Shown here one piece after another: positions 2,026 to 59,584 of a stretch of 64,000 nucleotides of DNA. The notes beneath the pieces are model-generated. The model saw only the letters and a program-made list of their open reading frames with translations, searched no databases and had not been told where the DNA came from. The stretch lies in NCBI GenBank assembly GCA_900169235.1, contig FWCC01000114.1:107431-171430 (forward strand), written 5' to 3'. Source of the DNA: Zarea fungicola. Taxonomy: Eukaryota; Ascomycota; Sordariomycetes; Hypocreales; Cordycipitaceae. Every line of letters begins with the position of its first letter. Within the stretch, counting starts at the first letter, position 1. The position numbers and the translations under genes are program-made.

Positions 2026-3039
2026 TCAGTACGTTTCAGTGTCCCAGCTCTTCTTCTCTGCATCGTTAAAGTCGTGGGCATCCCTCAACGTGTTGTACTC
2101 TTCCAAGGAAACCTCTTCAATCATGGGGACGATTCCGTGAGTCCTGGTGCCGTGCAGGATACGCTCATACGTGCCTGTGCCCTTTGGCACTCGGAATCGG
2201 CTCTTGCCATGCCACCACGACGCATGAAACCCAAGCGCAATCATGTAGCGCGGGCTGTCTGACGGATTGGGGATGCCGGCGTGCCAGGTGCGCATGTCCC
2301 GAAAGAGGACGGATCCCTTCTTGATGGTCGGCTGGAAGCCCGGAATCGTCTTCTTCCTCTCCTCGACGAAGCTGTCCAGGATGCGCGTCTCGCCCTTGGG
2401 GCCGGGCGGCGTCTGCGCCTCGCCGTTGAACAGGTGCGTGCCGGGCCAGATCTCGGTGGAGCCGTTGTACGGGCCCGTGTCCACGGTGTAGATGTTGCCA
2501 ATGGCATAGAACGGGCACGGCGGGTGGTTGCACATGGCGTCCGAGTGGGCGGGCTGCCGCTTCAGGCCATGCGGCAGCGCGTTGTTGCCCGAAATCAGGT
2601 TCCACGCGGGGTTCGCCCCCAGGTACAGCGTGGCCGCGTGGAACAAGAGGCCGTTGAGGTAGACGTCGTCGTAAAAGTACTCGGCGGGGAAGAGGGGAGG
2701 GCCCTGCTGGATGTTCTCGACGCCAAAGTTGCGGTGGAGGCTGTCGCCCTTTTTCAGCTCCTCGTTGGTGTCCTCCACCATGAAGGCATTGATCTTGTCC
2801 AGATGCGCCGGGTCAACCAGATCTTCCAGGACGACGACGCCGTCGCGGTGCATGCCGGCGAGGAGCAGCTTGATGTTGGCGTCATTGAAACGGCCGGCCG
2901 CCTTTTCCTCGGGCGACGCAATGACCTTGACCACTGTGTTTGGGCCCTGTTTTGGCAAACCCGGCATGTACGAATTATCCAAGGCATTAGCACGGCCCTG
3001 CACGGGCTCAGTAGCGGTTTGGGTGACTGTAACAGCCAT
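2026..3039 (-). CDS. PhyH-family Fe(II)/2-oxoglutarate dioxygenase
   Basis: Single-exon protein of 337 aa similar to fungal phytanoyl-CoA dioxygenase (PhyH) family enzymes. These are non-haem Fe(II)/2-oxoglutarate oxygenases, many of which hydroxylate small metabolites rather than phytanoyl-CoA. The iron-binding facial triad is visible: His165 and Asp167 (in PAHSDAM) and the distal His253 (in TWHAGIPN). Arg264, in SPRYMIALG, is the likely 2-oxoglutarate carboxylate ligand. The stretch GSTEIWPGTH (193-202) is typical of the family. The length is normal. It is transcribed divergently from the sugar transporter at 4187 across a 1.15-kb shared upstream region, which suggests co-regulation. No signal peptide is seen, so it is probably cytosolic. 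The substrate cannot be predicted; the neighbouring dehydrogenase and transporter suggest a degradative role, which is inference. Confidence 0.88.
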   Translation of the reverse strand: MAVTVTQTATEPVQGRANALDNSYMPGLPKQGPNTVVKVIASPEEKAAGRFNDANIKLLLAGMHRDGVVVLEDLVDPAHLDKINAFMVEDTNEELKKGDSLHRNFGVENIQQGPPLFPAEYFYDDVYLNGLLFHAATLYLGANPAWNLISGNNALPHGLKRQPAHSDAMCNHPPCPFYAIGNIYTVDTGPYNGSTEIWPGTHLFNGEAQTPPGPKGETRILDSFVEERKKTIPGFQPTIKKGSVLFRDMRTWHAGIPNPSDSPRYMIALGFHASWWHGKSRFRVPKGTGTYERILHGTRTHGIVPMIEEVSLEEYNTLRDAHDFNDAEKKSWDTETY

Positions 3040-4186
3040 TATTACGAAGAATGAATTAGAATGGGGTGAGCTGGTAGTAGATTTGATGTGCTATTCGCTG
3101 ACAAGAGCCGGCAGCGACAAAATCAACTGTGAGGCACTCTGTAATCTAAATTTGGCAGGTATGAGACGGCCAAGTTGCTGGTTTTATCCTCACTGACGCA
3201 ATGAATCCTGTTTCGTATACTTCTCGCCGGGCAGCGCTCAGCGTCTCGGCACAAATCGGTTCGTACGATGTCATGTCCATGACTATGTCCGCAGATAGCA
3301 ACCAGGTGCGGCGCTAGCACGGAGAAAGGCTGAGCGTACGGAGCAACTAAGAGCAAGTTCCGTATTGACGGAGCTGTCAACATAATGTGGCTGGGAGCCA
3401 CCTCCCTTAGCTCGGCGCTATACATTACCGGAGAGGTCAGGTCAGCAGTGTTATCAAACAGACGGAGATAGAGATGAAACTCCAGGTTCGACTGTTTTCG
3501 AGCAAAATGATACCTCATTTGCCATCCTTCAGGTGATTTATTATACCGTACGCTAGTTCTGTATTTCCGGCATCGTTCCATCCATGATTGCAAGGTTACA
3601 ATAACACGAATAGGCCGCTCCACAGTCGTAGTTTACTCGATCAAAATCCGGGGTAACTAGTTACTGGGGTAAACGGCGCTATGGGCCTCTTACACGGAAG
3701 CAAAGTAACGGCCTGCTAGGACTATGTACCAGGTAATTAAAGGACAATTCATGGGGAACGGGGTTTACCGCACGATTCCCCAATGGCAGATAGAGGTTAC
3801 TCGACTTCGTGTGTCAATGAAGCTGTACACAGACGAGAGCGCCACTGTACTGTCCTTATCTGGATTCGTAGCTACTCGGTAATACAGGTGTGCTGGTTGG
3901 CAGACTTGCCGAAGACCAACGCCTGCCTGGGGTATGGCCAGCGCCACAAAGCCGAAGCACACGCTCTCCATATACAAGTATTCCCTGTTTCCTCACCCAA
4001 ATGTCCTCGCCAGACTTCGTATTCAAAATTCACGAGAGTTCCTAACTCGCACAACACGTTTCTTCTTCCAAGTACATTTTCGTTGCATCTCTTTTGCTCT
4101 CCATTGTGCAAATCCGGCTTTCAACATCGTTCCTCCTCACGTTCAAAGCCGTCGGACGGGACTGCACATACAAAAGCGCCTGCACC
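3040..4186. promoter_or_regulatory. Shared divergent upstream region (dioxygenase / sugar transporter)
   Basis: 1.15 kb separates the ATGs of two divergent genes, so it must hold both promoters. No protein-coding signal was recognised. A 166-codon minus-strand frame (3123-3623) has no family resemblance. No canonical TATA or clear CGG-triplet pair was identified with confidence. Confidence 0.5.
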
Positions 4187-44423: not shown

Positions 44424-46251
44424 CTATGCGTTCGCTCTCTTACTTTCCGCAACAAGAGCCTTGACTTGTTCATTCTGATGCAAGATTTCCTCCCTCGCAC
44501 CATCCCATGTTTTTCTCTTTCCCGTCTCAAAGTAGCGAAAGGCATGGGCTGTTTCCACTCCATTGTTCATCAGATTGTACATCTTACGGTCCCGCAGCCA
44601 GAAGAGCCACCCTTTCCATCCCCAGCCAAGATTCTCCATACCGGTGCCAGCCGCCCGGTGCTGCCATTGCTGGAACTCCCATTGCTTCACAGAACCGACG
44701 TTGGTGGTGGGATCCAAGGCCCACCGACTTGCAACCCATTCTTGATGCCTGTCAATCCACCTTTCCATCTCGTCCCGAGATGGTGTCTGATGGATGCCGC
44801 GCCACACATTGCTAACAGCCATGGAAGTTACATCGGAAAAGGAAAACCCATTGTTCTTCCCGAATGCCGAATAACAGAGCATGACACATGAATCAGCATA
44901 GGCAGGAGGGAACAGATTCATGTAAAGACGATAGATGTCAGCGCCACCATACCCTTGCACATTGGGTCTGCTCGTTTCCATGAACGGTGCCGCTTGCCAG
45001 TCTGCCGCATAGCCAGTGCATAGGATCACGGCATCAATATCATCAAGAACCTGCCCATTTGCAAACTCTATCGACTTTGGGCCTGAAAACTTCTTGATTC
45101 CTGGCAGCGACTCAACTTTTCCTTCCTTTAACAGATCCATGACGCCTTCCCAGGAGCCCGGAAGTACCAAGCTGATTGATGGAAACGGTTCCAAGCCCCA
45201 TGCCTTGTCTAGTTTACCAAGCTCCGGCGTGTAATCCATGTAACGGCCCAGTCACCCAGTTTACGTGCAAGTCCTGGCACGTATCTCTGTAAAAACTGGC
45301 TGATTTGACGACGGCGCCATGTGATGACCAAATCCACAGGAACTCCATTTTGATATCTCCGGAACGGCAAAGCTCCTCTGCGATGGGAAACCCAGACCTT
45401 GGCAGCGTGCGGCACAAGGTTTGGGACGATGTCGCCAGACGTGCTAGTCAAGCCGATAACCACTACATTCTTATTTTTGAATTGTTCCGGACTGTTGTTG
45501 AATTAGTAGAGAAGGAATTATTTGGAGTGAATATGGTGGCACCACTGGCTAACCTCCGATACTGCTGGGAATGCATAATGATTCCCTGGTAATTATCCTG
45601 CCCCGGAAACACGGGAACATTGGCTTTGGTTTGATACCCATGGCAAAAAGCGACTTTATCGACTTCTGTAGAGTAAATTTGCTCACCGCGTTGGACTTGG
45701 AGAACCCATTTAGTGTCATCCTGATTTCGCGTCACTTTCAGCACGTTTGAACTGAAGACAATGTCTTTCAATAAATCAAAGTGCGTTGCGTATTCTTTCA
45801 TAAACTCCTGAAACTCTGCTGCCTTCATAAAGGTAGGAAATCCTGTTTTGGCAAATCAATTTTCGCTCAATTCTCGGTTGATGCGATAAAAGTGACAGGG
45901 ACAGTCAGACATACTATCGGGCATCGGATAGTCAGAGTAACCACACGTAAATTTAGAAATGTTTGCCACAGTGCCTTGAACGCCGTTGTCAGTGACGCAC
46001 TATTATATGATGGAATCGGCAGATTACTGACTTGGCAGTGCAGTTGTATAGTTGACATTGTCCGAGTATGCCCATAGACCACCGACGCCATCGCGTCGCT
46101 CATAGGCTGTAACGTCAAATCCGTCATCGCGCAGGGCTTTGAGCATTGACAGCCCCGAAGCGCCTACTTATCATCAGTTCAAGCTACGACAGATGATTCT
46201 GTGCGTCTCACCAGCTCCGATAACTGCTACCTTCATCTTGCCCATAGCCAT
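44424..46251 (-). CDS. Flavin-containing monooxygenase (FMO/Baeyer-Villiger-like), six exons
   Basis: Minus-strand exons are 46251-46212, 46163-46032, 45974-45915, 45842-45554, 45491-45265 and 45208-44424. Introns are 48-72 nt and GT-AG throughout, giving 510 aa. Motifs appear in order: MKVAVIGAGASGLSMLKAL (FAD Rossmann GxGxxG), GGLWAYSD, CGYSDYPMPD, VAFCHGYQTKANVP, a second nucleotide site VVVIGLTSTSGDI (NADPH), a WVSHRRGALPF segment, and the late LCTGYAADW motif (the ATGY box of FMOs). The last intron (45209-45264, GTAAAC...ACTAG) removes what otherwise looks like a frameshift. The enzyme would use NADPH and O2 for N-, S- or Baeyer-Villiger oxygenation. It is codirectional with the NRPS gene, whose stop lies 435 bp upstream, so it is the best candidate tailoring oxygenase for the peptide. 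An upstream ATG two codons before MGKM is used as start; either is possible. Confidence 0.88.
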
Positions 46252-46686: not shown

Positions 46687-49600
46687 TTAACTGGTCCGTA
46701 AACTTGATCGTCCAATAGTGGCTTCATCTACGCGGCCAAAGTCTGCCGCCGACTTTTGTATGAACCCAATGCGCTGCAGATATCGCACACTGCTCTTGAT
46801 TGCATCTCTAGTTGCTGCATGAGGTAAGATTTCTGGCAATACCTCCTTTACCTGAGTGGCTGACTTTGGGCGCTCAAGGAAGTCTTGTACAGCCCATAAA
46901 GGGTGTTTCTCCTGCATCTCCCCCATCTGCCGCTGTGCTTCCTCGAGCCATTTCGCATAGGGTGACATCATCAATTCCAGACCCGTCTCTTCGCCAACTA
47001 TTTTCCACAGTTCATTCATGGATATGCCGTTGGTAATCTCGGTAAAAGCGTCCACGCCCTGATGGCTAAAGAGTGGCCGGATAATGGCAGCAGCAACTTC
47101 ATCCACCGCCGCAAGCTGTACCCAATCTTGCCCCTCGTCTAATTGCGGTGCTTGACGCAGGGCAACGGATGCAGCGACAAGACGCCATAGGAAATCGTCT
47201 ACATTGGCGACTCCAAACGATGCGGTGCCAATAATGAGACCAGGCTTGACCACCGCGATGCGGTTCTGGTCAGCTGGTAGCTTGTTTGCCAACTCACACA
47301 CAATACTTTCCGAAATGAACTTGGTTTGCGAGTAGCCATTTTGATGGGCAAGTTCATTGCACATCTCTCTAGCAGACTGTGTCCCATTGCGTTTGGAACC
47401 AGTGCCTCCGGAAACAAAAATAAATTTCGGCTGCCTGGGCGAGGCGATGGTAGCTTGGAGCAGGCGAATCGTGGAGGTGATATTTTCGGCCTTTAATGCA
47501 TGAAAGTCGGCGCTCCAGTTGACAACCGCGCCATTATGGATAATGGCATCCATGTTGCCAGCAGTAGAGAGGCCCAAAAGGCGTGAGTATTGACCTGCGC
47601 TCAGACCGAGCTGGTCCTTCCCTAGGTCACCTAACCAAACTTCAATCTTGGCTTCATATTCGGGCATCCACCATCCCGCTATTTCGGCAGTCATCTTGAC
47701 TCGTTCAACACCATGCGCTACTGTATCGGCACGAGCGAGGACAACGACTGTGGCAACTTGGTCCTGTTTTACCGACTCGTGAAGGAGCTCTGTGCCCAAA
47801 TAACCGGTCGCGCCGGTCAAGAAGATGGTAGCTTCCTGTGGAAGAATCGTGCAACAATGGTGTTGTAGAGTTTCAATATCGGAGAGACTCTCAATCGCAG
47901 AAGTAATTTCACCGTAAAAGTCATGCATTATCCCATCTGATTCCTTGGCGCCATTTCTTTGTGTTTCGATCGCTCTGGCCATCGTTTCAATCGTAGTTTT
48001 GGAGCTTCCAAAGACGGACAGTCCAATTCCATCGCCATGGGCTGCTTTGATGAGCTGGACCAAAGAAACAATTCTAATCGAGTCGCCTCCGAGACTGTAA
48101 AAATTGTCTGTCGCGCCAATTGAGCTTGCTGGCACGCCCAGCACCCGCGACCAGTAGCCCTGGATCTCCAACTCCAACGGACCCTGGCATTTTCTCGATG
48201 TGTGATCACGGGAAACGCTGTATTTAAGCAAATCAGAGGGATTTAAGGCAGATAAAGTGGCTTTGAGTGCCCGGCGGTCAAGCTTTCCAGTACTTGTTTG
48301 TGGTATGTCGTCCAGAGGAATAAAATATTGTGGTCTTAAGGCGGCAGGAAGGCGCAGGGACATGAACTCGAGAGCCTCGGCAAAAAGAGCGCCGACTTCC
48401 TTGTCTGATGGCTTGCCTGTGCCAAAGTCAACAAATGCCGCCAGTGCCTTTGTAGATCCAGATTCGACAATGTCAACCGCAACCTGCTTGACGCCTTGAA
48501 TGGCACTTGACAAATGGAATTCAATTTCTCCAGTTTCAATCCTCTGCCCGCGAAGTTTGAGCTGCGAGTCCTTTCTGCCCATGTAGTCAAATGTGCCATC
48601 TGCATTGCGACGGACAAGATCGCCGGTCAGATATCCTCTGCCGGAATGACTGCCAGGCAACCAATCGATATTCTCGAGCCATTTGGCTTCATCCTTGGCA
48701 GTGGCATTGCGGTAACCTCGGGCGAGTAGAGGACCTTGGATTAAAAGTTCACCCATGCAACCAACAGGTACCATCTCTTTCGGATTCGCGGGATCCACGA
48801 CCCAAAATGCAGACAGCAATGGGTGCCCAATATTTGTAGACTTGCCATCGTACCCAAGACGTGGCTTCCACGAGCAAATCGACGACTCCGCCGGGCCGTA
48901 CAAGCCATGAAGATCAACCGAGTTTTTCCACTTATTCGCGACCGCCTCACCAACTGCCTCACCGCCAAGGCAAACAGTTTTGAGGCTGGGTACATCATGA
49001 GGCGACAAGAGGTTTGCGATTGTTGGTGTCAGGAACACCCAGTTTGCTTGTGTGGAGTTGATGCTCTCGGCCAGTTCATGTATGCGCGAGTAATCCGAGG
49101 GAACACACACGCAGCCGCCGCGCATTAGTGTGACAAGAATGTCCAAGATTCCCACATCAAATATATAGGATGAAAACTGGAAAACTCTTGTGCCAGGGCC
49201 AATCTTGAGAGATTCACCATATCCATCCGCAGAAGAGCATATAGCGCTATGCGAAATCTCCACGCCCTTTGGTTTGCCAGTGGTGCCGGATGTGAAAATT
49301 ATGAAGCTGCAGTCCGCCGGGCCAGTTTCTTCTCGCTTCAATAGAGCGTTTTGAGGGAGAGCTGTGATTGCATCTTCGTTGATGATCAGTATGTCTACCG
49401 CCACAAACGACGCCAGTTTCTTGAAGCAGCTCTTTGATGCAAGAATGAGTGGCGCGCTCACATCTGCAATTAGTGTTTCGAGTCGTTTGATTGGAGCTTC
49501 TGGGTCAAGAGGCACAAAGGCACCGCCAGCCATCTGAATACCCAACATGGCAACAACTGCCCACGCCGATTTCACGAAGCAAACCGGGACCACGACATTG

Positions 49601-52600
49601 GGACCAATGCCGCGCTGCTGGAGCATTACTGCCAACGGTCGAGCAGCCTTGTAGAGCTCCGCATAAGTAAAGGTTGCATCCCACGAATTAACGGCTGGAA
49701 TATTTCCATTTAATTCGACCTGTTGTTCAAATTGCCCATGAACACAGGCCGCAGAGGCTGGCCTCAGATTGCTATTCTCCAGGGCGTGGTCTTTGTCCCA
49801 TTGGCAAACAAAGGACACATCGGACAGAAGAGATTGCGGATGAGAAAAGACTTGCTGGAGGACATGCTGGAATTGGTTTGAAAATGCTACAATCTCATCT
49901 TCAGCGACAACACTGGAGTCGTATGTGAAGAGAAGATCGATTGAGCATTCGCCAGAAAAACACTGCGCCACAAGAGGGTAGTTGAAGAAGTTTTGCGAGG
50001 CTTCCTCATCAAGTACATCTTCAACTGATTGATAGAAGAATAAACTACCGCTCTTTTTATCGTTCTTTTTGTCGTCCGCCCGTGTGGTATTAGCTGCCTG
50101 GATAATCAGCAGGCTTGTAAAGTCACATGCCGACTTTTCCACTGTTCCAAGTTTGGCAATATTCTGCAAGCCGAATTGTTCATATGCGGCATCATTAGAC
50201 GCTTCATTCTGCACAACGGCTAAGAGATCCATAACGCGCTTGCTCCTATCGATGGCAACGCAAAAGGGGATGGTTGCAATCATGGGACCAGGCATCTGCT
50301 CCAGTCCAGCTACGGATGCTTGACGGCCAGAAACGGTACTGCCAAAGCACACTCTCTCTGTTCCTGAGTACCGTTCCAAGACAAGTGCCCACGCAGTACG
50401 AATAAAATTCGCATTTGTAACCGGGATTTCCACATTCTTGGTGAAGGCGACACTCCTTTTCCATGTCTTGGTCTGTCGTTCGGCACAGTTTTCTTTCGGT
50501 CTGGATGGAAAGGAAGAGGGAATCGCATCGCAGAGTTTTGTTTTCCAATAGGCACTTGCACTCTTTTCATCAATGCTGTTGATATACTTGACGAACCCAG
50601 AGAATGGTTGCGGAGGTGAAACCCCTCTCCTGTAGTAGAAATTCTCCAGTGCCTGAAAAACGAGAGAAAATACCCAGCCATCGTAGATCGAGTGGTGCAT
50701 CATGAATGAAAATGTGCCTGTTCCATCCGATGTAGACTCAATCGAGTAATAGCAAAGTCGTGAGCCATACCCAATCTTGTTCACATCGAGGTCAAACTGC
50801 TCACTCCATGTAGCCTCCTCTTTGACAATGACTTGAAACGCTTTACCGTCAACGAGGACAATTCTAGTACGAGTATTCTCATACAAGCTGATTACTTGAT
50901 TCCAAGCATTCTTGAACCTGTGGATATCCACTTCTGCTCTGAGAGGTATGGAGACCTTGTTGATGTATGAACCTGGTTGCGTAACCGTGAGAGACATCAA
51001 GCCTTCCTGCATTGCAGTACAAGGATACACATCTTCAATACTCTTGACATCTTCAATATCGCACAATTTGGCTACTGAAGCGACGAAATGTCCAACATCA
51101 TTAGTGCCAAGCAGGCTGAATGGTGGCGCTGTGAAGACAACGTTATCATTTTCGCCTCCGATGGCAACAGCCATGTCTGCGAGCACTGGTGTCTGAAACA
51201 CAGTTCTAGCCGTCAATTGTAGACCATTTCTACGCGCTTGACTAGCGAGTTGAATTGCGCTAAACGAATCGCCACCTATGAGGAAGAAATTGTCCTCTGA
51301 GCTAATGTCCTCTACTTCCAGAGACAGGGCGGAGGCCCATAGCTCACGCAGCTCGGCTTCCACACTGTTGGCTGGCATAGCCATTTTTTTCCTCTGTATT
51401 TCAACGGATGGGAACACTTCTGGTAAAGACCGATCGGTTGCACTCTGTTTCTGCTGCCCGTCAATTGAGGGAAGGATGTGACCAACTGTCTGTTCGGGGT
51501 TGACTATGAGCTGATGAATGGCTGTTTCAAGGTGAGCTGAAAGCTCTGAAGCCTCTTTCTCAGACATGCAATAGGTGTTGTAGATGTACGATATGCGCAA
51601 ACTTGACTCCAGCATTTGACAGTTCACGATAAGGGGAAACCCATCGTATCGTGCAGCAGCTTCGAGCAGTCCTTCATCCTCCGAAACTGGAGGCTCCAAG
51701 ATTGAAACAGACTCAGCACCAAGTTGTTGGAGCTGTGCTTCAATACTTTGTGCAGGCTGTATCACAAGTACATGTCCACAATCAATAGCTTCCTTGAAAC
51801 CAGTACAGAGCTTCGCAATATTATGCAGCCCATATTGTTCATGAGGAATTATTTCAGTCGCCAGTTTTTGAACATCCTGCAATAAACTCTTGACTTGCTG
51901 GCTGTCATTCACGTGGACTCGGAAAGGGATGATGCTAATGGTGAGACCAGGCATGTGCTCAATGCCGTCGACGGCAGCCAGACGGCCACTCATGGTATCA
52001 GAGAAGCAGACGTCATCGGTGGCGCAGTGCCGTGAAAGTACAATGGCCCACGCAGCACGAACAATTGAGGGAACTGTTATTGATGAGTCTCTCAGCGGTG
52101 GCATTGATGTAGATCGGACAAGAAGTCTGGGATCATGGATGCCACCAGTCGTTGGACCACGCCTGGGGAACATGGATTGCTTTGCGCCATCCAGTTGCCC
52201 GATCCAGAACTCCTTCGTCAACCCTTCATCTTGCAATTGAATATAGTCGATAAACGCAGTATAAGGCGCATGAACCCTGGGGCGCTGAAGTGTGTACGCA
52301 TCATGGAGGGCCATGAGGAGAATGTTGATAGACCAGCCATCAAATATCGAGTGCTGCATTGCCAAGATCAAGGTAATTCCTTCTTCATCTCTTACCAAGT
52401 TAGCCCTACAGAGCGGTGTACCATAAATCATATCTGTTTCCAGCAATGCCGCCCGTGCATCGGATGTACTCCGCACGTTCTCGACTTTGCTAATGCATGG
52501 TTGTCGTGTTTCAAGAACAGTCTGCCAGGTCTTCCCCGACGCCGAAACGAGCCGTGTTCTCAGATTGATAGAGTTGTTGACAGTCATATTCCAGGCGCTA

Positions 52601-55600
52601 ATGAAACGATCCATGTCCACGTTCCTCAGTACTTTAAAACTGTGAAGTGCAACGTATGATCCGGATGTTTTCTCCGCCGCAGCTATAAGCCTTTCTTGCA
52701 TGGGGGTTGAGGGGTAAATGTCGATAATTTTTTCACCGGGAAGCAGCTGGATCGACTCCTTGACCTGTTTGATGATGGAATCTCTGTTCTGTTCCGGAAG
52801 AAGGCCGAATGCCTCAATTTCACGCTTTTCGCCAAATGACTCCCCAACGGTGAGTGCTAGGTCACATAATTTCGGTTTTCGGAATACATCTTGCACAGTC
52901 AGGCTCATATTTAACTTGCGTGCCTGGCTAACCAATTCCATGGCAGCAATTGAATCGCCACCGATGGCAAGAAAGCTGTCATGCTTGCCAATATCCACTG
53001 CATCACGGTTTAAAACATTTGCCCACAGGTCTCTCAGCTTCAATTCTTTTTCTGTACTCGGCCTGGTTTTTGTTGCTGCTTGAAAAGAATATTCCGTGAG
53101 CTGCTTCGAGGTCAAGGCCATTCCCATTGACCGAAGGCTCTTTCTGTCGGTCTTCATAGATTGTAGGCGAGGAATATTGGAGATTGGAATGTACATGGAA
53201 GGAATCATGTACGGCGGTAGGGTCTCATTTAGGCTGCTGATGAGGGCAGTCATAGAGGTCACCATCCGATCGTCGACTGGCAAGACAGCGGCTTCGTCGG
53301 TGTCCAGCCCACTTTCCGGGGATTGAATGAAGGCTGCCAGGAACTCCCGCGTTTCTAGACGAAGAACCTCCACAGCGACACCAGAAATCGCTGGTAGGGC
53401 GATTTTAATGGCCGTCTCAACTTCACCTAGTTCAATTCGTCTCCCTCTAATCTTGATCTGCGTGTCTTTTCGGGACACAAACTCAATATTTCCATCCGGC
53501 GAGAATCTGACCAAATCGCCCGTTTTGTAAAATCTCCGTGTATCTCCTTCGCATCTCGGCATCCAATCGATATCCTTCAGGAATGACTTTTCCGTCGCGG
53601 CTTCATTCTTCAGATAGCCACGCGCGAGACAGTGCCCATGCAGTACAAGTTCCCCAACGCAGCCAACCGGAGTGAGTCTGTTGTGGTCATCTGGCTCGAC
53701 AATCCAGCAGTCTGTATTGAAGCCCTTACCAATCATTGTTGGCTGGGTGTCAGGCGACTCCACGGTGAGCATGGTGTTAGAAACGGCAGCCTCTGTTGGA
53801 CCATATCCGAACATGAGCTTGACTCTGCCGTACCACATATCTTGCGCATCCTTGGAGATGGCTTCTGCTCCCATAACAAGTGTCTTGAGAGTTTTTAAAT
53901 CTCTTGGATTAAGGGTTCGTGCAAAAGTAGGGGTCAGAATTGTAAAGTTGACATGCGAAGAATTCATGAAACTCGTGCAGTCATAAAGGCGTTCCTCGTC
54001 GGTCGGGGAACATACCGTACCACCAGCAATCAAGGTTCCAAAAGTCTCGATTATGGTGACGTCAAACATGTAGCTGCTAAATTGTAACATTCTCGTCTCT
54101 TTGGTAATTCCGTAAGCTTTGATGTGCGCCAACATGGACATCGATACAGCAGCATGTTCGAGAACGATGCCCTTTGGCTTTCCTGTCGAACCAGAGGTGA
54201 AAAAACAATACACGGGAGAGCTCGGCGATACTTTTGGAAGAGATACCTCGGAGGTTTCAGCAGGTACATCGACGAAAAATGATTGAGAAAGCTCAATCGG
54301 CGTGATCAAGAGGTCATTGCAGCTTTTTCGTTGCAAAGGAGACACTACCATCACCTCTGCCTCAGTCTCTTCAATTAACATCTGCCTTCTTGTAGCAGGA
54401 TAGGAACTGTCAAGAGGTAGAAACGCAGCACCTGCTTTCAAGATTGCAACAATTGCAACAATGGCCCACATAGATTTTTCGAACAGAAATGGTACAATCA
54501 TGCCTTCCTTGACACCCTTCAGTACAAGATACTGAGCAAATAATGTCGAGTATGTATCCAAGGTCTTGTTGCTCATGCTACCAGCGGTTGTAACGATGGC
54601 GGTATTCTCGGGTCGTGCTTGAAGTGCCTCCGAAAGCAGTTCGTGCAGGCAGGCATCCACCGGCTCAGCGACAGTTTCGCTGTTCCAGCGCCTGACTTGT
54701 TGGGCATCCCAATCTCCCGCTACGGACAGATCCCCGACTGTCAAAGAGCCAGGCTCATTCAACTGCTCAACAATATGGGCATACTGGTATGTTAGTGCCT
54801 CGATTTGACGGTCGCAGAATACGTCGCCGTCAAAGGTGAAGTATGTCGCGAAGCTATCCGCCCGCGTCTCTACTTGGAGAGATAAAGTGTAGTTCAGATA
54901 CTCGGATAAGGCTCCTTCTATTGCATTTTCGAGAGATATCAATCTTTTTGGCCCATTTTGGAAAAATTCGTGTGTGAACGGTTGGATAGCAAGAAGACTC
55001 GTAAAGTTGCAAGCTTCCTTGGCGTCTGCGCTGACTTTGGCAATGTTAGACAACCCAAATTGTTCAAACTCAATGGCCTCGGCCGATGCCTTTTGTAGCT
55101 CATTGAGCATTTCCTTGATGGGCTGCCCGGCCGTCAAGTGTATGTGTGCAGGAATAGTCGCGAGTGTAAGGCCTGGCATCTTTTCAATGCCACGAAGGTC
55201 AGACTGACGACCAGAATGAACCTGTCCAAAACATATGTCGTCCGAGTCAGAGTACTTGGCCAAGAGAATTCCCCAAGCCGCTCGTAAAATTGTGGCTTGT
55301 GTAATTGAGGATGTGCGATTTGGTGTCATGGAATGTGTATGAATGGAATGAATTGCACGTTTCCGCTTCTTGCTGACTGGTAAGGGGGGTGGGAAAATCG
55401 AGGGCTTGACGTCTTTCATCTCTCTTCTCCAATATTCGACTGCTTTTTCTTCGTTGACATTTTTTAAGCTTTGAATAAAAGCACTGTGTGGTGTTAAAGC
55501 GAGTTCACAGTCCAAGTTTTCGTATAATTGCTGGGCCACGTCGGTAATGATGCCCATAGTCCAGCCGTCGTAGGTGGCATGGTGTAGACTCCAAACGAAG

Positions 55601-56754
55601 TACATATCTGTTCCTTTTTGAGCTACACCATAGCGACACAAAGATTGTCCAAGGCCACGTTCAAGATGTGGCAGCGTCGCAGGCCCGTGAAGTTGCCAAG
55701 CCGACAGTTCATCGGTTGAGTACCACCCAGTCGCTTGTTTCAGAACGACTTGCAAGGTATGACCATGTACACGCACCATACGTGTTCGCAAATTTGCACA
55801 TAAATCTACTGTCCTTTCCCAGGCAGCTCGAAAACGGTCAAGGTCGACCTCCGCAGGCAGTCTGTGGATGTGGTGTGAAGTATAGGTTCCTGGAAATTTC
55901 ATTTCCTCCACCATTAATCCTTCCTGCAGTGGGCTGCAAGGAAGTACATCCTCAATTTCCACTACACTTTCTAGAGAGCATGCTCCCTGAATCTCTTTTA
56001 ATAGCTCGTCGACATTATCAATAATTCCATGCAATAATTCAAATGGTTTGGCGTGAACTGTGGATTTCGGTCGGGAGATTGAAGCCACCGATGCCATCTC
56101 CTCGAGTCGTGGGTACTGAAAGATTTGGCCAGCCGAAAGCCCAATATTGTTTTCTTGCGCCAAGGCAGCAAGCTGGATGACATTGACAGAGTTGCCCCCC
56201 TTGGCGATGAAACTGTCGCGAGAGTCAATACTCGCCACCTCTATGTCCAGCGCCCTCGCCCAAAAAAGGGCCAGTAGCCGCCTCATAGAGTCTTGGTTGA
56301 CACTGGGTGCCGATTTCATTTCATTGACCAGCGATGCCACCTCGCCCTTCCAAGTCTTTGTATTCTCTTTTGGCGGCGCCAGCGATAGGCGCAATTCCAG
56401 CTCGTCAATCGCGCCTGTAGCTGTAATGGGAAACTCCTGCAAAACGAGCCATTGCTTCGGTATTATCAATAGTGCATTTCCAGAAGCCTTTTTAAATTTA
56501 ATTAGTGACTTTCTGGCGTCTTTGAGCAGCATGGTGGTGTCTCCCTCAGTTTGCTGTAGGGAGACAATGACTGCCCATTTGGGCTCTGCATCCTGGTCCG
56601 CCAAATTCAAAACCTTGGCCTGGCGAATATTTGAGTTACTGCTTATGTGGTATTCAATCTCCTGCTGCCATGATATCTTTGGCTCAGGATTCATCTTCTC
56701 GACTGTTTGCGGAACGGGCGAGCTGCCCAAGCCCAGTGCATGTGGAGGTGCCAT
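46687..56754 (-). CDS. Non-ribosomal peptide synthetase with terminal reductase: (A remnant)-T-C-A-T-C-T-C-A-T-R
   Basis: One uninterrupted exon of 3355 codons. Residues 1-125 resemble only the C-terminal end of an adenylation domain (FPITATGAIDELELR in place of the usual GKxDR). T1 has Ser189 (GGNSV). C1 (265-690) has HHATYDG at 391-397. A1 (700-1210) has FTSGSTGKPKG (852-862), FGYGPTEAA, YKTGDLVRF and K1201. T2 has Ser1268. C2 (1345-1770) has QHSIFDG (1467-1473), with the first His replaced but the catalytic His kept. T3 has Ser1830. C3 (1905-2320) has HHSIYDG (2020-2026). A2 (2335-2830) has FTSGTTGKPKG (2487-2497), LYGPAESS and GKLDR with K2824. T4 has Ser2892. The reductase (2975-3345) has FLTGATGYLG and Tyr3141xxxLys3145. 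It would build a short peptide and release it as an aldehyde or alcohol. The middle C-T unit has no A domain, so T3 must be loaded from elsewhere or skipped. Extracted A-domain pocket residues (by eye) are DVIIVGGVS and DVLFCGLIC; substrates are not predicted. Confidence 0.95.
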   Translation of the reverse strand: MAPPHALGLGSSPVPQTVEKMNPEPKISWQQEIEYHISSNSNIRQAKVLNLADQDAEPKWAVIVSLQQTEGDTTMLLKDARKSLIKFKKASGNALLIIPKQWLVLQEFPITATGAIDELELRLSLAPPKENTKTWKGEVASLVNEMKSAPSVNQDSMRRLLALFWARALDIEVASIDSRDSFIAKGGNSVNVIQLAALAQENNIGLSAGQIFQYPRLEEMASVASISRPKSTVHAKPFELLHGIIDNVDELLKEIQGACSLESVVEIEDVLPCSPLQEGLMVEEMKFPGTYTSHHIHRLPAEVDLDRFRAAWERTVDLCANLRTRMVRVHGHTLQVVLKQATGWYSTDELSAWQLHGPATLPHLERGLGQSLCRYGVAQKGTDMYFVWSLHHATYDGWTMGIITDVAQQLYENLDCELALTPHSAFIQSLKNVNEEKAVEYWRREMKDVKPSIFPPPLPVSKKRKRAIHSIHTHSMTPNRTSSITQATILRAAWGILLAKYSDSDDICFGQVHSGRQSDLRGIEKMPGLTLATIPAHIHLTAGQPIKEMLNELQKASAEAIEFEQFGLSNIAKVSADAKEACNFTSLLAIQPFTHEFFQNGPKRLISLENAIEGALSEYLNYTLSLQVETRADSFATYFTFDGDVFCDRQIEALTYQYAHIVEQLNEPGSLTVGDLSVAGDWDAQQVRRWNSETVAEPVDACLHELLSEALQARPENTAIVTTAGSMSNKTLDTYSTLFAQYLVLKGVKEGMIVPFLFEKSMWAIVAIVAILKAGAAFLPLDSSYPATRRQMLIEETEAEVMVVSPLQRKSCNDLLITPIELSQSFFVDVPAETSEVSLPKVSPSSPVYCFFTSGSTGKPKGIVLEHAAVSMSMLAHIKAYGITKETRMLQFSSYMFDVTIIETFGTLIAGGTVCSPTDEERLYDCTSFMNSSHVNFTILTPTFARTLNPRDLKTLKTLVMGAEAISKDAQDMWYGRVKLMFGYGPTEAAVSNTMLTVESPDTQPTMIGKGFNTDCWIVEPDDHNRLTPVGCVGELVLHGHCLARGYLKNEAATEKSFLKDIDWMPRCEGDTRRFYKTGDLVRFSPDGNIEFVSRKDTQIKIRGRRIELGEVETAIKIALPAISGVAVEVLRLETREFLAAFIQSPESGLDTDEAAVLPVDDRMVTSMTALISSLNETLPPYMIPSMYIPISNIPRLQSMKTDRKSLRSMGMALTSKQLTEYSFQAATKTRPSTEKELKLRDLWANVLNRDAVDIGKHDSFLAIGGDSIAAMELVSQARKLNMSLTVQDVFRKPKLCDLALTVGESFGEKREIEAFGLLPEQNRDSIIKQVKESIQLLPGEKIIDIYPSTPMQERLIAAAEKTSGSYVALHSFKVLRNVDMDRFISAWNMTVNNSINLRTRLVSASGKTWQTVLETRQPCISKVENVRSTSDARAALLETDMIYGTPLCRANLVRDEEGITLILAMQHSIFDGWSINILLMALHDAYTLQRPRVHAPYTAFIDYIQLQDEGLTKEFWIGQLDGAKQSMFPRRGPTTGGIHDPRLLVRSTSMPPLRDSSITVPSIVRAAWAIVLSRHCATDDVCFSDTMSGRLAAVDGIEHMPGLTISIIPFRVHVNDSQQVKSLLQDVQKLATEIIPHEQYGLHNIAKLCTGFKEAIDCGHVLVIQPAQSIEAQLQQLGAESVSILEPPVSEDEGLLEAAARYDGFPLIVNCQMLESSLRISYIYNTYCMSEKEASELSAHLETAIHQLIVNPEQTVGHILPSIDGQQKQSATDRSLPEVFPSVEIQRKKMAMPANSVEAELRELWASALSLEVEDISSEDNFFLIGGDSFSAIQLASQARRNGLQLTARTVFQTPVLADMAVAIGGENDNVVFTAPPFSLLGTNDVGHFVASVAKLCDIEDVKSIEDVYPCTAMQEGLMSLTVTQPGSYINKVSIPLRAEVDIHRFKNAWNQVISLYENTRTRIVLVDGKAFQVIVKEEATWSEQFDLDVNKIGYGSRLCYYSIESTSDGTGTFSFMMHHSIYDGWVFSLVFQALENFYYRRGVSPPQPFSGFVKYINSIDEKSASAYWKTKLCDAIPSSFPSRPKENCAERQTKTWKRSVAFTKNVEIPVTNANFIRTAWALVLERYSGTERVCFGSTVSGRQASVAGLEQMPGPMIATIPFCVAIDRSKRVMDLLAVVQNEASNDAAYEQFGLQNIAKLGTVEKSACDFTSLLIIQAANTTRADDKKNDKKSGSLFFYQSVEDVLDEEASQNFFNYPLVAQCFSGECSIDLLFTYDSSVVAEDEIVAFSNQFQHVLQQVFSHPQSLLSDVSFVCQWDKDHALENSNLRPASAACVHGQFEQQVELNGNIPAVNSWDATFTYAELYKAARPLAVMLQQRGIGPNVVVPVCFVKSAWAVVAMLGIQMAGGAFVPLDPEAPIKRLETLIADVSAPLILASKSCFKKLASFVAVDILIINEDAITALPQNALLKREETGPADCSFIIFTSGTTGKPKGVEISHSAICSSADGYGESLKIGPGTRVFQFSSYIFDVGILDILVTLMRGGCVCVPSDYSRIHELAESINSTQANWVFLTPTIANLLSPHDVPSLKTVCLGGEAVGEAVANKWKNSVDLHGLYGPAESSICSWKPRLGYDGKSTNIGHPLLSAFWVVDPANPKEMVPVGCMGELLIQGPLLARGYRNATAKDEAKWLENIDWLPGSHSGRGYLTGDLVRRNADGTFDYMGRKDSQLKLRGQRIETGEIEFHLSSAIQGVKQVAVDIVESGSTKALAAFVDFGTGKPSDKEVGALFAEALEFMSLRLPAALRPQYFIPLDDIPQTSTGKLDRRALKATLSALNPSDLLKYSVSRDHTSRKCQGPLELEIQGYWSRVLGVPASSIGATDNFYSLGGDSIRIVSLVQLIKAAHGDGIGLSVFGSSKTTIETMARAIETQRNGAKESDGIMHDFYGEITSAIESLSDIETLQHHCCTILPQEATIFLTGATGYLGTELLHESVKQDQVATVVVLARADTVAHGVERVKMTAEIAGWWMPEYEAKIEVWLGDLGKDQLGLSAGQYSRLLGLSTAGNMDAIIHNGAVVNWSADFHALKAENITSTIRLLQATIASPRQPKFIFVSGGTGSKRNGTQSAREMCNELAHQNGYSQTKFISESIVCELANKLPADQNRIAVVKPGLIIGTASFGVANVDDFLWRLVAASVALRQAPQLDEGQDWVQLAAVDEVAAAIIRPLFSHQGVDAFTEITNGISMNELWKIVGEETGLELMMSPYAKWLEEAQRQMGEMQEKHPLWAVQDFLERPKSATQVKEVLPEILPHAATRDAIKSSVRYLQRIGFIQKSAADFGRVDEATIGRSSLRTS

Positions 56755-58486
56755 GATGTTCTTGTAAGTTCAAAGGCACCTGTTGCTGCTTACTCTTGTC
56801 GAATCGGCAGACCTACGCACACTTTTCCTCTGCGGTCGAAATAAACAACCAAGAAATGAGCTTCAAGTAGGGAGTTTAGATGAGAAAGGCATGTGGGAGT
56901 ATGATAACGCTGACCGAATGGCTGCTTCGCTGGGAGCACCACAACATATTCATAGTAACTACATGGCCCATTTCAATCGCTTCATTGGCATCCAGAAGTC
57001 ACAACTGGAGCGGATCGACTACTATACTCTCAGCCCTTTCCGAGCCAAGCTGCAGTAAAAGAGTCTCTATTGCGGAAGAGTGTCAGCACTGTATTGCGCC
57101 ACTTGTGGGGGCTCATGGTGCATCAAAGGCTTGAGCCCTCGCATAAACGAACTGAACGAGCTCCGTGCGTGGGCCGCGAGAACCGGAAGTGACGAACGCA
57201 TTTGTCTGGGGCACCCGTTGCATGTCAGACAGGTAACTTTATGTCTTATAATTAACTCAATTCCGAGCAGGGGCTAGTTATGCTATAGTGCACGAGAAAT
57301 AATCCTCGGACGCAAGGCTGAACTTTGCGCTAACCAGTGAGCACTGGCTGACATTTCTCGATACCAAAGTTACGACTCAACAACGGGACAACTAGTTCTT
57401 GCTGCGTTGGAGGAAGCCATGAAAAATTAGAAATTTTGGTTCATCTTACAAACGTTGGATAGTCCAAGAAATAAAAGATCTGCAGTCATATGTCTCTGGG
57501 TGGGCGGACTTGGGTGTCGAAATACCTTTGAACCCCGTCAGTTCCGCAAGTCGCATATCCATGAGTAATCGAAACAACAGTCCGGTTGCGCCCGCCACAA
57601 TTTAATTTATGCGAGGTGGGTAGCAAGACCAAAAACGAACCCTCGCAAATGAACGAAAAGAGGCCATTAAAATACAACCAGAATTGGACAGTTAGTGCAG
57701 CGTGCCACGCCACTTTACACCGACACCATACCCAGAACTGCCACTTGTTACAGATAAGTTGACTATTATGTAACTAACACGGACATAAAAGCTGTTTTTA
57801 TTTCTATTATTTCTCCTTCTTCTTATCTGCTGTGTTTCTATTATTTCTACTATTTTTCTTATTTCTTTACTTTTCTTGTTCGTCTTGTTTCCATTGCTGT
57901 TGGCCCCATGTTGCTGTATTTTTTCTTGTTACTCTTATTTCTATTAGTTTTTCTTCTATTTCTTACTTTTCTTATTATTTTCTTATTTTTGTTAATTACT
58001 ACTTTTCCGCGAGGCGGCCAAGAAAATGGAAATTGATCAAAACAAGGGATGGACGTGCACTGTCACTTGTTACAGATTAACTGACCATGTTAGTCAATAA
58101 TTGCCGGCATAATTAACGAAATAATTGGCCCAATAGTGGCCTGCTGTTAAACTGGCAACGGTTGGCTGTTAATTAATTACTCTGCATTATTATATAGTAA
58201 CTAATAGTGGATGGGCTTAACAAAAGTGCTGGTCAAATCATTCCCATGCCAAATACGAAAAGTAAATTGCCAGAGATGTGGAGCTTGGCCACTGTCAATC
58301 GGTGATAGAAAGTCGGCCGCGTCGGAAGAAATCACCGCCACTGCTTCTATTCTCACTATCATTGCACTCCTCGTCCCTTCTATGCTACAATGATTTTTGG
58401 GCATTGTATCCAGCCTAAACACCATGCCCCGATGAAGAATTAACTCCATTATCCCGCAGACTGTTGTCCTCATCGGGATAGCGGCC
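56755..58486. promoter_or_regulatory. Shared upstream region of the NRPS (minus) and kinase-like gene (plus)
   Basis: 1.73 kb between divergent ATGs. It includes a long pyrimidine-rich tract at 57796-57990. Short frames (56783-57058 plus, 57486-57713 minus) have no family features. No regulator-binding site could be defined. Confidence 0.5.
57796..57990 (+). repeat. Pyrimidine-rich low-complexity tract (TTCT/TATT repeats)
   Basis: About 195 bp are almost entirely T and C, with scattered TTATTTCT-like units and few G. Such tracts can exclude nucleosomes in promoters. It lies between two divergent genes but 500 bp from the nearer ATG. Confidence 0.75.
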
Positions 58487-59584
58487 ATGGAAGCTGACCG
58501 TGAGTATCACGTCCGCAGTTACACCCACACGAACCCTGGTGAATTGCCCGCGCGATTCACCCTCGAGATACGCCTGAATGGAAAAAATTTCGCAATCAGC
58601 GTCATTGAATCACGCTTCCGTAACTCTCCAGAGAGACTGCGTGAGTTCCATGAGTACCTCTCGTTTTTGATGTCAAATGAGGATGAGGAAGAGTACGAGG
58701 AGGAGAACGTCGCCGAAGCTGCTCAGGCCAATGGTCCAAGTCATGGCCAGCTTGGCATCAGTGTTTATGACTGTTTTGCCTGGACCGTGGAGCCATTCTT
58801 AAGTTCATTTAAGGAACTGGCCCCAAAGCCAATGCCTGCGTCCAAAATCACTCTTGACGCCTTTTTCAATTCTGATTCATACGAATGCTGGCTCGGAGCT
58901 GTGGATGATCGTCCAGATCTTGGACCGATTGACGTTTTACAAATGGAGCCTGCTTTTTTCCCCGAAAATCTGTCCCCCGACTCCAGGACTGACTATGGTA
59001 CACCCGCATCGGCCTTCTTTCCCACCTTCCCACTGTCCGAGATTGAGGTTATAGGCGATGACCCCAGCACAATTTTTGATGCCCCACCTGAAGTAGTACG
59101 TGTCAAAGGGAAGGAGTACTTTTTCAAGTCCTTTGAGGCAGTGGGTGAGGATCTAGGAAGGAAAGAGATTCGAAAGTACGAGCAGATCGCCAAGGCGAAT
59201 TTTGACGCCGAGGTGCGCACTTCTCGCTTGTTCGGTATTGCACAGGATGCTCAAAAGGCCATCATGGGCATTTTGCTCCATCGAATTGAGGAGGATACCA
59301 CTCTTGAATTCGCAGTTCAACCGGAAACGCCACAGGATGTTAGGAAAAGCTGGATCGAGCAACTTCAGCAGACGCTGTGGGCCTTGCACGAACAAGATAT
59401 CGTCTGGGGGGATGCTAAGAATTCCAACGTGCTTATTGATGTGAATGGTGATGCCTGGGTCATTGATTTTGGTGGCGGCTACACGAGAGGTTGGGTTGAT
59501 GCGGACGACTCGGGAACCATCGCGGGAGACCTCGAGGGGCTGGAGAAGATTATGCACTTTATCAAAACCGGGGAGTATTTGTAA
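58487..59584 (+). CDS. Fungal protein-kinase-fold protein
   Basis: Intronless, 365 aa; ATG at 58487 in context GCCATGG. Residues 1-200 are not recognised and include an acidic run (DEEEYEEEN, about 66-74). Residues 205-365 form a compact kinase-like domain. They include YFFKSF with Lys214 (ATP-anchoring position), QTLWALHEQDIVWGDAKNSNVLI with Asp309 and Asn314 (catalytic loop, HRD replaced by WGD), and WVIDFGGGY with Asp327 (DFG). The C-lobe is short. The key residues are present, so activity as a kinase or small-molecule phosphotransferase is possible. Genes of this type are common and fast-evolving in filamentous fungi. It lies upstream of, and divergent from, the NRPS; a functional link is unproven. 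Confidence 0.8.
   Translation: MEADREYHVRSYTHTNPGELPARFTLEIRLNGKNFAISVIESRFRNSPERLREFHEYLSFLMSNEDEEEYEEENVAEAAQANGPSHGQLGISVYDCFAWTVEPFLSSFKELAPKPMPASKITLDAFFNSDSYECWLGAVDDRPDLGPIDVLQMEPAFFPENLSPDSRTDYGTPASAFFPTFPLSEIEVIGDDPSTIFDAPPEVVRVKGKEYFFKSFEAVGEDLGRKEIRKYEQIAKANFDAEVRTSRLFGIAQDAQKAIMGILLHRIEEDTTLEFAVQPETPQDVRKSWIEQLQQTLWALHEQDIVWGDAKNSNVLIDVNGDAWVIDFGGGYTRGWVDADDSGTIAGDLEGLEKIMHFIKTGEYL

What the first reader, a model, noticed from the sequence alone, without database searches (positions are those of the whole stretch)
46687..56754. NRPS with more carriers than A domains, an N-terminal A remnant and a reductive exit
Direct reading gives four carrier domains and three C domains with intact HxxxDG, but only two complete A domains. 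The C2-T3 unit has no A domain at all, and the protein begins with just the tail of an A domain whose GKxDR lysine is lost. T1 therefore also lacks a cognate A domain. Fungal siderophore synthetases also have A-less C-T units, but they do not end in a thioester reductase. Combining A-less loading modules with a terminal R domain implies in-trans or inter-module loading followed by aldehyde or alcohol release. I cannot match this layout to a known product.
Basis: partly seen in the sequence, partly recalled or inferred. Interest (0 to 1): 0.78.

Follow-up and report, generated by a model that had tools for sequence, protein, structure and literature searches.

The report
Peptide synthetase that shed adenylation domains
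A fungal peptide-making enzyme that ends in a reductase has kept its carriers and bond-forming domains but lost two of its amino-acid-loading domains, and relatives show one of these losses in stages, so a remaining loading domain probably serves more than one carrier, as in fungal iron-carrier enzymes.

Summary
One intronless 3355-residue ORF (46687-56754, minus) reads [A-tail]-T1-C1-A1-T2-C2-T3-C3-A2-T4-R; six-frame scanning finds no other A domain in the 64 kb. Relatives argue against a missed exon or assembly fault. The N-terminal A-tail is shared: 5 of 6 orthologues, this one included, begin M[A/S]PPHAL, and the GKxDR lysine is gone in all six. The A-less C2-T3 unit ends an erosion series: the C-to-T linker is 567 aa with a whole A domain in an outgroup, 238-242 or 123 aa with decayed A remnants in five relatives, and 32 aa here. 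T3 stays as conserved as the carriers of complete modules. The gene also lost one module in frame, with the breakpoint in the T1 core. Best mechanism (inferred): A1 charges T2 and T3, as in SidC's C-A-T-C-T unit; T1 is loaded in trans or is vestigial; R releases an aldehyde or alcohol. The elements have precedents: SidC for inter-modular loading, fusaoctaxin NRPS5/NRPS9 for a truncated first A plus R exit. I found no characterised enzyme with the whole string. New variant of a known kind.

The parts
46687..56754 (-). NRPS gene, one exon, 3355 aa, [a]-T-C-A-T-C-T-C-A-T-R (range includes the stop codon)
56299..56754 (-). N-terminal tail (residues 1-152): remnant of an A-domain C-terminal subdomain, GKxDR replaced by GAIDE (residues 114-118)
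56092..56298 (-). T1 (153-221), GGNS; a chimera: front half like the first T of P0003, back half like its second T
54724..55938 (-). C1 (273-677), HHATYDG; orthologous to the second C of the longer relatives
53089..54612 (-). A1 (715-1222), complete; pocket letters DVIIVGGVS
52855..53061 (-). T2 (1232-1300), GGDS
51472..52710 (-). C2 (1349-1761), QHSIFDG
51376..51471 (-). 32-aa linker where relatives carry an A domain or its remnant
51169..51375 (-). T3 (1794-1862), GGDS, no A domain in its module
49813..51021 (-). C3 (1912-2314), HHSIYDG
48220..49704 (-). A2 (2351-2845), complete; pocket letters DVLFCGLIC, the same in all 5 read here (this protein, P0003, P0004, P0005, P0007)
48007..48186 (-). 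T4 (2857-2916), GGDS
46744..47832 (-). R domain (2975-3337) with GATGYLG and GYSQTK
44427..46251 (-). FMO-like gene 0.4 kb downstream on the same strand, exons called by hand; the reading frame changes near 45.2 kb (an intron I did not recognise, or a break); link to the pathway inferred from position only

Best explanation
A reductase-ended, non-linear NRPS of a probably hypocrealean fungus that shed A domains while keeping their C and T partners. Shown by sequence: relatives carry a whole A domain or its decayed remnant in the middle module where this protein has a 32-aa linker, while T3, C2 and C3 keep their motifs. Shown: relative to the longer orthologues, one module near the start is missing in frame, with the breakpoint in T1. 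Inferred: A1, which sits as C-A-T-C-T with T2 and T3, loads both T2 and T3 with the same amino acid, as SidC A3 does for T3 and T4 (A2 loading T3 is possible but has no precedent that I read). Inferred, less sure: T1 is charged by a separate enzyme, or is a leftover and the chain begins on T2. Inferred from the domain family: R releases the chain as an aldehyde or alcohol. Expected core: (X-)aa1-aa1-aa2-CHO or -CH2OH, both amino acids unassigned.
For: C2-to-T3 linkers: 567 aa with a full A (P0032), 242, 238, 242, 241 (P0003, P0004, P0005, P0007), 123 (P0016), 32 here. The remnants begin at A-core profile positions 298-302 in all five that have one, so one ancestral deletion is likely. P0007 against P0003, P0004, P0005: linker with remnant 38% identical, T3 68-74%, intact A C-terminal parts 65-71%. 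Against P0006: T3 94.2%, linker 71.9%, N-tail 80.3%. T3 Ser and C2/C3 catalytic His are kept in this protein, P0003-P0007 and P0016. Breakpoint in T1. SidC C3-A3-T3-C4-T4 loading one module downstream, by intact-protein MS: PMC10192304 (passages). R domain.
Against: No biochemical or expression data. Sequence cannot say which A domain charges T3, or whether T3 is charged at all. A partner A-T protein is not excluded: the contig ends 7.2 kb upstream, and only 14 of 140 AMP-binding candidates were scored genome-wide. C3 is the least conserved C domain against P0006 (85.6%, against 92.8% for C1 and 89.1% for C2). SidC loads a hydroxamate amino acid; nothing shows such a substrate here. The neighbouring FMO gene may be frame-broken.
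Confidence: 0.6

Rival explanations
1. Trans loading: a separate A-T protein (NRPS9-like), or an acyl-AMP ligase for T1, charges T1 and/or T3.
For: NRPS9 (A-T) is proposed to start the chain of NRPS5, whose first A domain is called truncated, in an R-ended system. The fellutamide cluster has a fatty-acyl-AMP ligase, inpC. SyrB1/SyrE is a bacterial case of an A-less module served in trans.
Against: No other A core in the 64 kb window, 46.7 kb of which lie downstream of the gene. Upstream only 7.2 kb are visible before the contig ends.
Confidence: 0.25
2. Silent module: T3 is never charged; the chain is handed on or the module is skipped, and the product is shorter than the carrier count.
For: N-terminal units of relatives have lost catalytic residues yet are retained: the first C lost its His in P0003, P0004 and P0005, and the first T lost its Ser in P0004 and P0005. 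The C453 paralogue has GGTA in its first T and no HHxxxDG in its first C. So dead units can persist in this family.
Against: T3, C2 and C3 do not look like those units: their motifs are intact, and T3 identity is in the range of T2 and T4.
Confidence: 0.1
3. Pseudogene or assembly/annotation artefact: the A domains were lost on the way to death, or an upstream exon is missed.
For: The frame of the neighbouring FMO gene changes without a recognised intron. P0006, 89% identical, departs from the family sequence after about residue 2553.
Against: Intact 3355-codon frame. The start M[A/S]PPHAL is shared by P0003, P0004, P0005 and P0006. The A-less module is shared by seven proteins, counting this one. 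No A core upstream.
Confidence: 0.05

Closest known systems
SidC / NPS2 ferrichrome synthetases (PMC10192304, PMC2644324; passages read)
   Same: C-A-T-C-T order with A-less modules; A-domain loss inferred from phylogeny; inter-modular loading shown for SidC
   Different: R exit instead of terminal T-C units; here the A-less module arose inside another family, as the remnants show
Fusaoctaxin A synthetase NRPS5 with loader NRPS9 (PMC6389888, PMC6563249; passages read)
   Same: R-ended fungal NRPS whose first A domain is called truncated; linear product with a C-terminal alcohol
   Different: NRPS5 is printed with seven elongation modules, five of them with E domains, and no A-less internal module; no A-T partner is visible here
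Leucinostatin synthetase LcsA (PMC4946873; passages read)
   Same: Linear R-ended NRPS of a hypocrealean fungus; the starter comes from a separate enzyme
   Different: Ten C-A-PCP modules, with PKS genes nearby; no A core outside the NRPS was found here, and no PKS among the 20 ORFs scanned
Unnamed proteins of Akanthomyces muscarius (P0003), Aphanocladium album (P0004), A. lecanii (P0005)
   Same: Orthologues, 60-64% identical in BLAST pieces, with the same A-less middle module and R exit
   Different: One more module at the front, and a linker of 238-242 aa with an A remnant in the middle module

Membership tests
Reductase-ended multimodular fungal NRPS | C-terminal thioester reductase after the last T | tested here: met
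   TIGR01746 above cut-off; PDB hits 6nki (NRPS) and MxaA; GATGYLG and GYSQTK
Reductase-ended multimodular fungal NRPS | Releases aldehyde or alcohol | not testable with these tools
   Needs product analysis
Ferrichrome synthetase (SidC/NPS2) | Terminal T-C unit or repeat | tested here: not met
   The protein ends C-A-T-R
Ferrichrome synthetase (SidC/NPS2) | A-less C-T unit directly after a complete C-A-T | tested here: met
   C1-A1-T2-C2-T3; a resemblance of order only
SidC-like inter-modular loading | A domain charges the T one module downstream | not testable with these tools
   Intact-protein MS needed
Fusaoctaxin NRPS5/NRPS9 system | Truncated first A domain and R exit | tested here: met
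Fusaoctaxin NRPS5/NRPS9 system | E domains in most modules | tested here: not met
   Only three PF00668 stretches, all in C positions
Fusaoctaxin NRPS5/NRPS9 system | Clustered A-T loading protein | tested here: inconclusive
   None in 64 kb, but the contig ends 7.2 kb upstream
Lipopeptide NRPS started by T-C with an acyl ligase | Acyl-AMP ligase or PKS in the cluster | tested here: inconclusive
   No A core in six frames; Pfam was run on 20 of the 67 other ORFs of 120 aa or more; contig end near

The most novel reading that the evidence does not exclude
A natural, stepwise record of an NRPS becoming non-linear: one A domain deleted in stages while its carrier stays in use, plus loss of a whole module by recombination in the T-domain core. 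The result would be an R-ended synthetase in which one A domain serves two (or, with T1, three) carriers and so makes a repeat-containing peptide aldehyde or alcohol.
Probability: 0.5. Interest if true: 0.6.

Novelty: new variant of a known kind. Interest (0 to 1): 0.45.

Why it matters
Inter-modular loading has been shown biochemically for fungal siderophore NRPSs. If it also runs in a reductase-ended line, it is a more general outcome of A-domain loss and not a siderophore speciality. The relatives give a graded series (full A, two sizes of remnant, none) on which to test what C and T need for loading by a neighbouring A domain. The T-core breakpoint marks a deletion point that evolution tolerated.

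Tried and rejected
Missed upstream exon: rejected. There is no A core in six frames, and the start is shared by four relatives. Hidden A domain between C2 and T3: rejected (32 aa). E domain mistaken for C: rejected, since the three PF00668 stretches sit in C positions. Membership of the ferrichrome family: rejected (R exit, no terminal T-C). Substrate call from pocket letters: read but not made; PMC2644324 reports that the 10-letter code failed for its fungal set. Shared versus separate module deletion in P0007: left open; its breakpoint is unclear, and the fork that joins P0007, the pair with P0006, and P0003-P0005 is drawn open in the tree. Wider search for the N-terminal tail (residues 1-240): of 29 hits only this protein and P0006 (83%) are close; the rest are 23-33% identical, and the known orthologues P0003, P0004, P0005 and P0007 were not listed, so this search says little about how widespread the tail is. 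Homology search with the FMO protein: not run; the part before the frame change is 265 aa, and the tool's length window would exclude proteins longer than about 464 aa, so the last protein search went to P0032. Structure prediction: not run; a single-sequence model was judged likely to be poor. Paper searches without any hit; the other searches.

Full report
What is there. The finding lies on one stop-free reading frame on the minus strand, 46687..56769, with its first Met at 56754 and 3355 residues. Pfam reports three Condensation, two AMP-binding, four PP-binding and one NAD_binding_4 stretch; the reductase passes the NCBIfam cut-off. HMMs built here give the order [a]-T1-C1-A1-T2-C2-T3-C3-A2-T4-R. 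All four carrier serines and the catalytic His of all three C domains are present.

No missed A domain. 2035 six-frame pieces of 20 aa or more of the window were scanned with the A-core, A-tail, T, C and R models; outside this gene only noise appeared (best 6.7 bits). Relatives argue for the same start: P0003, P0004, P0005 and P0006 begin M[A/S]PPHAL as this protein does; P0007 starts later. The first 150 residues contain the tail of an A domain: a profile of 10 such N-termini matches the A C-terminal-subdomain profile with probability 93.8 and E 1.7e-7, against 0.2-0.4% for A-core, T and C profiles. In single sequences the tail is weak (8.0 bits, E 0.3 here), so this rests on the profile and on the aligned GAID/GKxD position. 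A search with residues 1-240 alone listed 29 proteins; only this one and P0006 were close, and the known orthologues were missed, so it does not measure how widespread the tail is.

Relatives. The protein search scored 2495 candidates and listed 120 of 1184 hits. Clear orthologues are P0006 (89% over 2553 residues), P0007 (59-64% in BLAST pieces), P0003 (Akanthomyces muscarius), P0004 (Aphanocladium album) and P0005 (Akanthomyces lecanii). P0016 (39-44%) and P0032 (37-41%) are more distant. The species of the window was not determined; 'hypocrealean' is inferred from these names and from recalled taxonomy. A quick tree of the last C-A-T-R part of 21 proteins groups this gene, P0006, P0007 and P0003-P0005 (SH-aLRT 100), then P0016 (93), then P0032 (100); it is rooted at the midpoint only, and P0006 fills 44% of the columns.

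Erosion of the middle A domain. Between C2 and T3, P0032 has 567 aa with a whole A domain. P0003, P0004, P0005 and P0007 have 238-242 aa, P0016 has 123 aa, and this protein has 32 aa. The remnants start at the same place in the A core (profile positions 298-302), so the first deletion is probably shared. P0016 lacks the later part of the A tail, the others keep it in decayed form, and in this protein and P0006 nothing is left. In P0007 against P0003-P0005 the remnant linker is 38% identical, T3 68-74%, C2 61-63%, C3 60-62% and the intact A C-terminal parts 65-71%. Against P0006, T3 is 94.2% identical, the linker 71.9% and the N-tail 80.3%; among C domains, C3 is lowest (85.6%, against 92.8% for C1 and 89.1% for C2). 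The A domain decayed while its carrier did not. That this is loss and not gain is supported by the remnants themselves.

Loss of a module at the front. C1 of this protein matches the second C of P0003 (58%, against 35% for the first), the A1 core matches its second A core (76%), and so on to the end. Residues 1 to about 185 match the N-terminus of P0003; from about 190-200 on the match moves to the region after its second T core. An in-frame deletion of about 1080 residues with a breakpoint near the GG(D/N)S core of T1 explains this. P0007 lacks the same module, but its breakpoint is less clear, so I do not say whether the two losses are one event.

Is T1 used? In P0003, P0004 and P0005 the first C has lost its catalytic His (HAAVHDV, HNAIYDA, HASVCDA); the first T has lost its Ser in P0004 and P0005 but not in P0003. 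A second reductase-ended NRPS in the same genome (C453) also begins with a T reading GGTA and a truncated C without HHxxxDG; four of five close relatives read GGTA and one GGNA. A decaying N-terminal unit is therefore common in these enzymes. Here T1 keeps Ser and C1 keeps HHATYDG, while P0007 reads HHAIYDF at C1. Use of T1 stays open.

Mechanism. SidC makes the best model: its A3 charges T3 and T4 in a C-A-T-C-T piece, shown by intact-protein MS (PMC10192304; abstract and passages). C1-A1-T2-C2-T3 has the same order. I therefore think A1 most likely charges T2 and T3. For T1 and an R exit the closest case is fusaoctaxin: NRPS5 ends in R, its first A domain is called truncated, and NRPS9 (A-T) is proposed to supply the starter (PMC6389888 and PMC6563249, passages). 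None of the loading steps is shown for this protein.

What counts against the reading. There are no expression data. In the FMO-like gene next door (46251-44427) the reading frame changes near 45.2 kb without an intron that I recognised; it may be a missed intron, an assembly error or a broken gene. The contig ends 7.2 kb upstream, so a loading partner could lie out of sight, and the genome-wide AMP-binding search scored only 14 of 140 candidates. Pocket letters were read (DVIIVGGVS for A1, DVLFCGLIC for A2), but no substrate is assigned.

How unusual. Of 43 R-bearing proteins among the 241 examined (this gene counted once), 11 have a C-T step without a full A domain by my caller; two of the 11 (P0185, P0187) look like faulty gene models. 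P0082 and P0154 carry A-less modules too. P0082 sits elsewhere in the 21-protein tree; P0154 was not in that tree. The set was gathered by similarity to this gene and to P0032, so it is not a census. A-domain loss is described for ferrichrome synthetases (PMC2644324, passages) and a degenerate A domain for ChNPS6 (PMC2823734, passages). In the listings and passages that I saw from ten paper searches of the held library, no paper describes this domain string; several of these searches were aimed at precedents, three returned nothing, and the library lacks most subscription journals.

Verdict. The layout is real, conserved in part and explained by domain loss. It is a new variant of a known kind; its value lies in the graded series and in a testable loading hypothesis.

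Noticed in passing
44427-46251: FMO-like gene 0.4 kb downstream of the NRPS on the same strand; its reading frame changes near 45.2 kb, through a missed intron, an assembly error or a break.
   Followed up: partly
G000:C453:88340-103270 (L009, L010): A second R-ended NRPS in the same genome, 63-65% identical to five proteins (three named, from Akanthomyces and Aphanocladium), with GGTA in its first T and a first C without HHxxxDG.
   Followed up: partly
48220-49704 (A2): Pocket letters DVLFCGLIC are the same in the last A domain of this protein, P0003, P0004, P0005 and P0007, and occur in two neighbouring modules of P0015; substrate unknown.
   Followed up: no
P0154, P0082: Other R-ended NRPSs with an A-less internal module (linkers 53 and 42 aa); P0082 lies elsewhere in the tree, so at least one separate loss is likely.
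   Followed up: no
P0191, P0192, P0199, P0203, P0210, P0220, P0224, P0227: Aspergillus NRPSs without an R domain share an A-less C-T step with a 145-152 aa linker.
   Followed up: no
window end, 64000: The window ends exactly at the end of contig C141 (171430 bases), so neighbours more than 7.2 kb upstream of the NRPS are not visible.
   Followed up: yes
58436-59581: Single-frame ORF of 382 aa upstream of the NRPS on the opposite strand with a weak protein-kinase match (29.1 bits, under the Pfam cut-off of 31.7).
   Followed up: no
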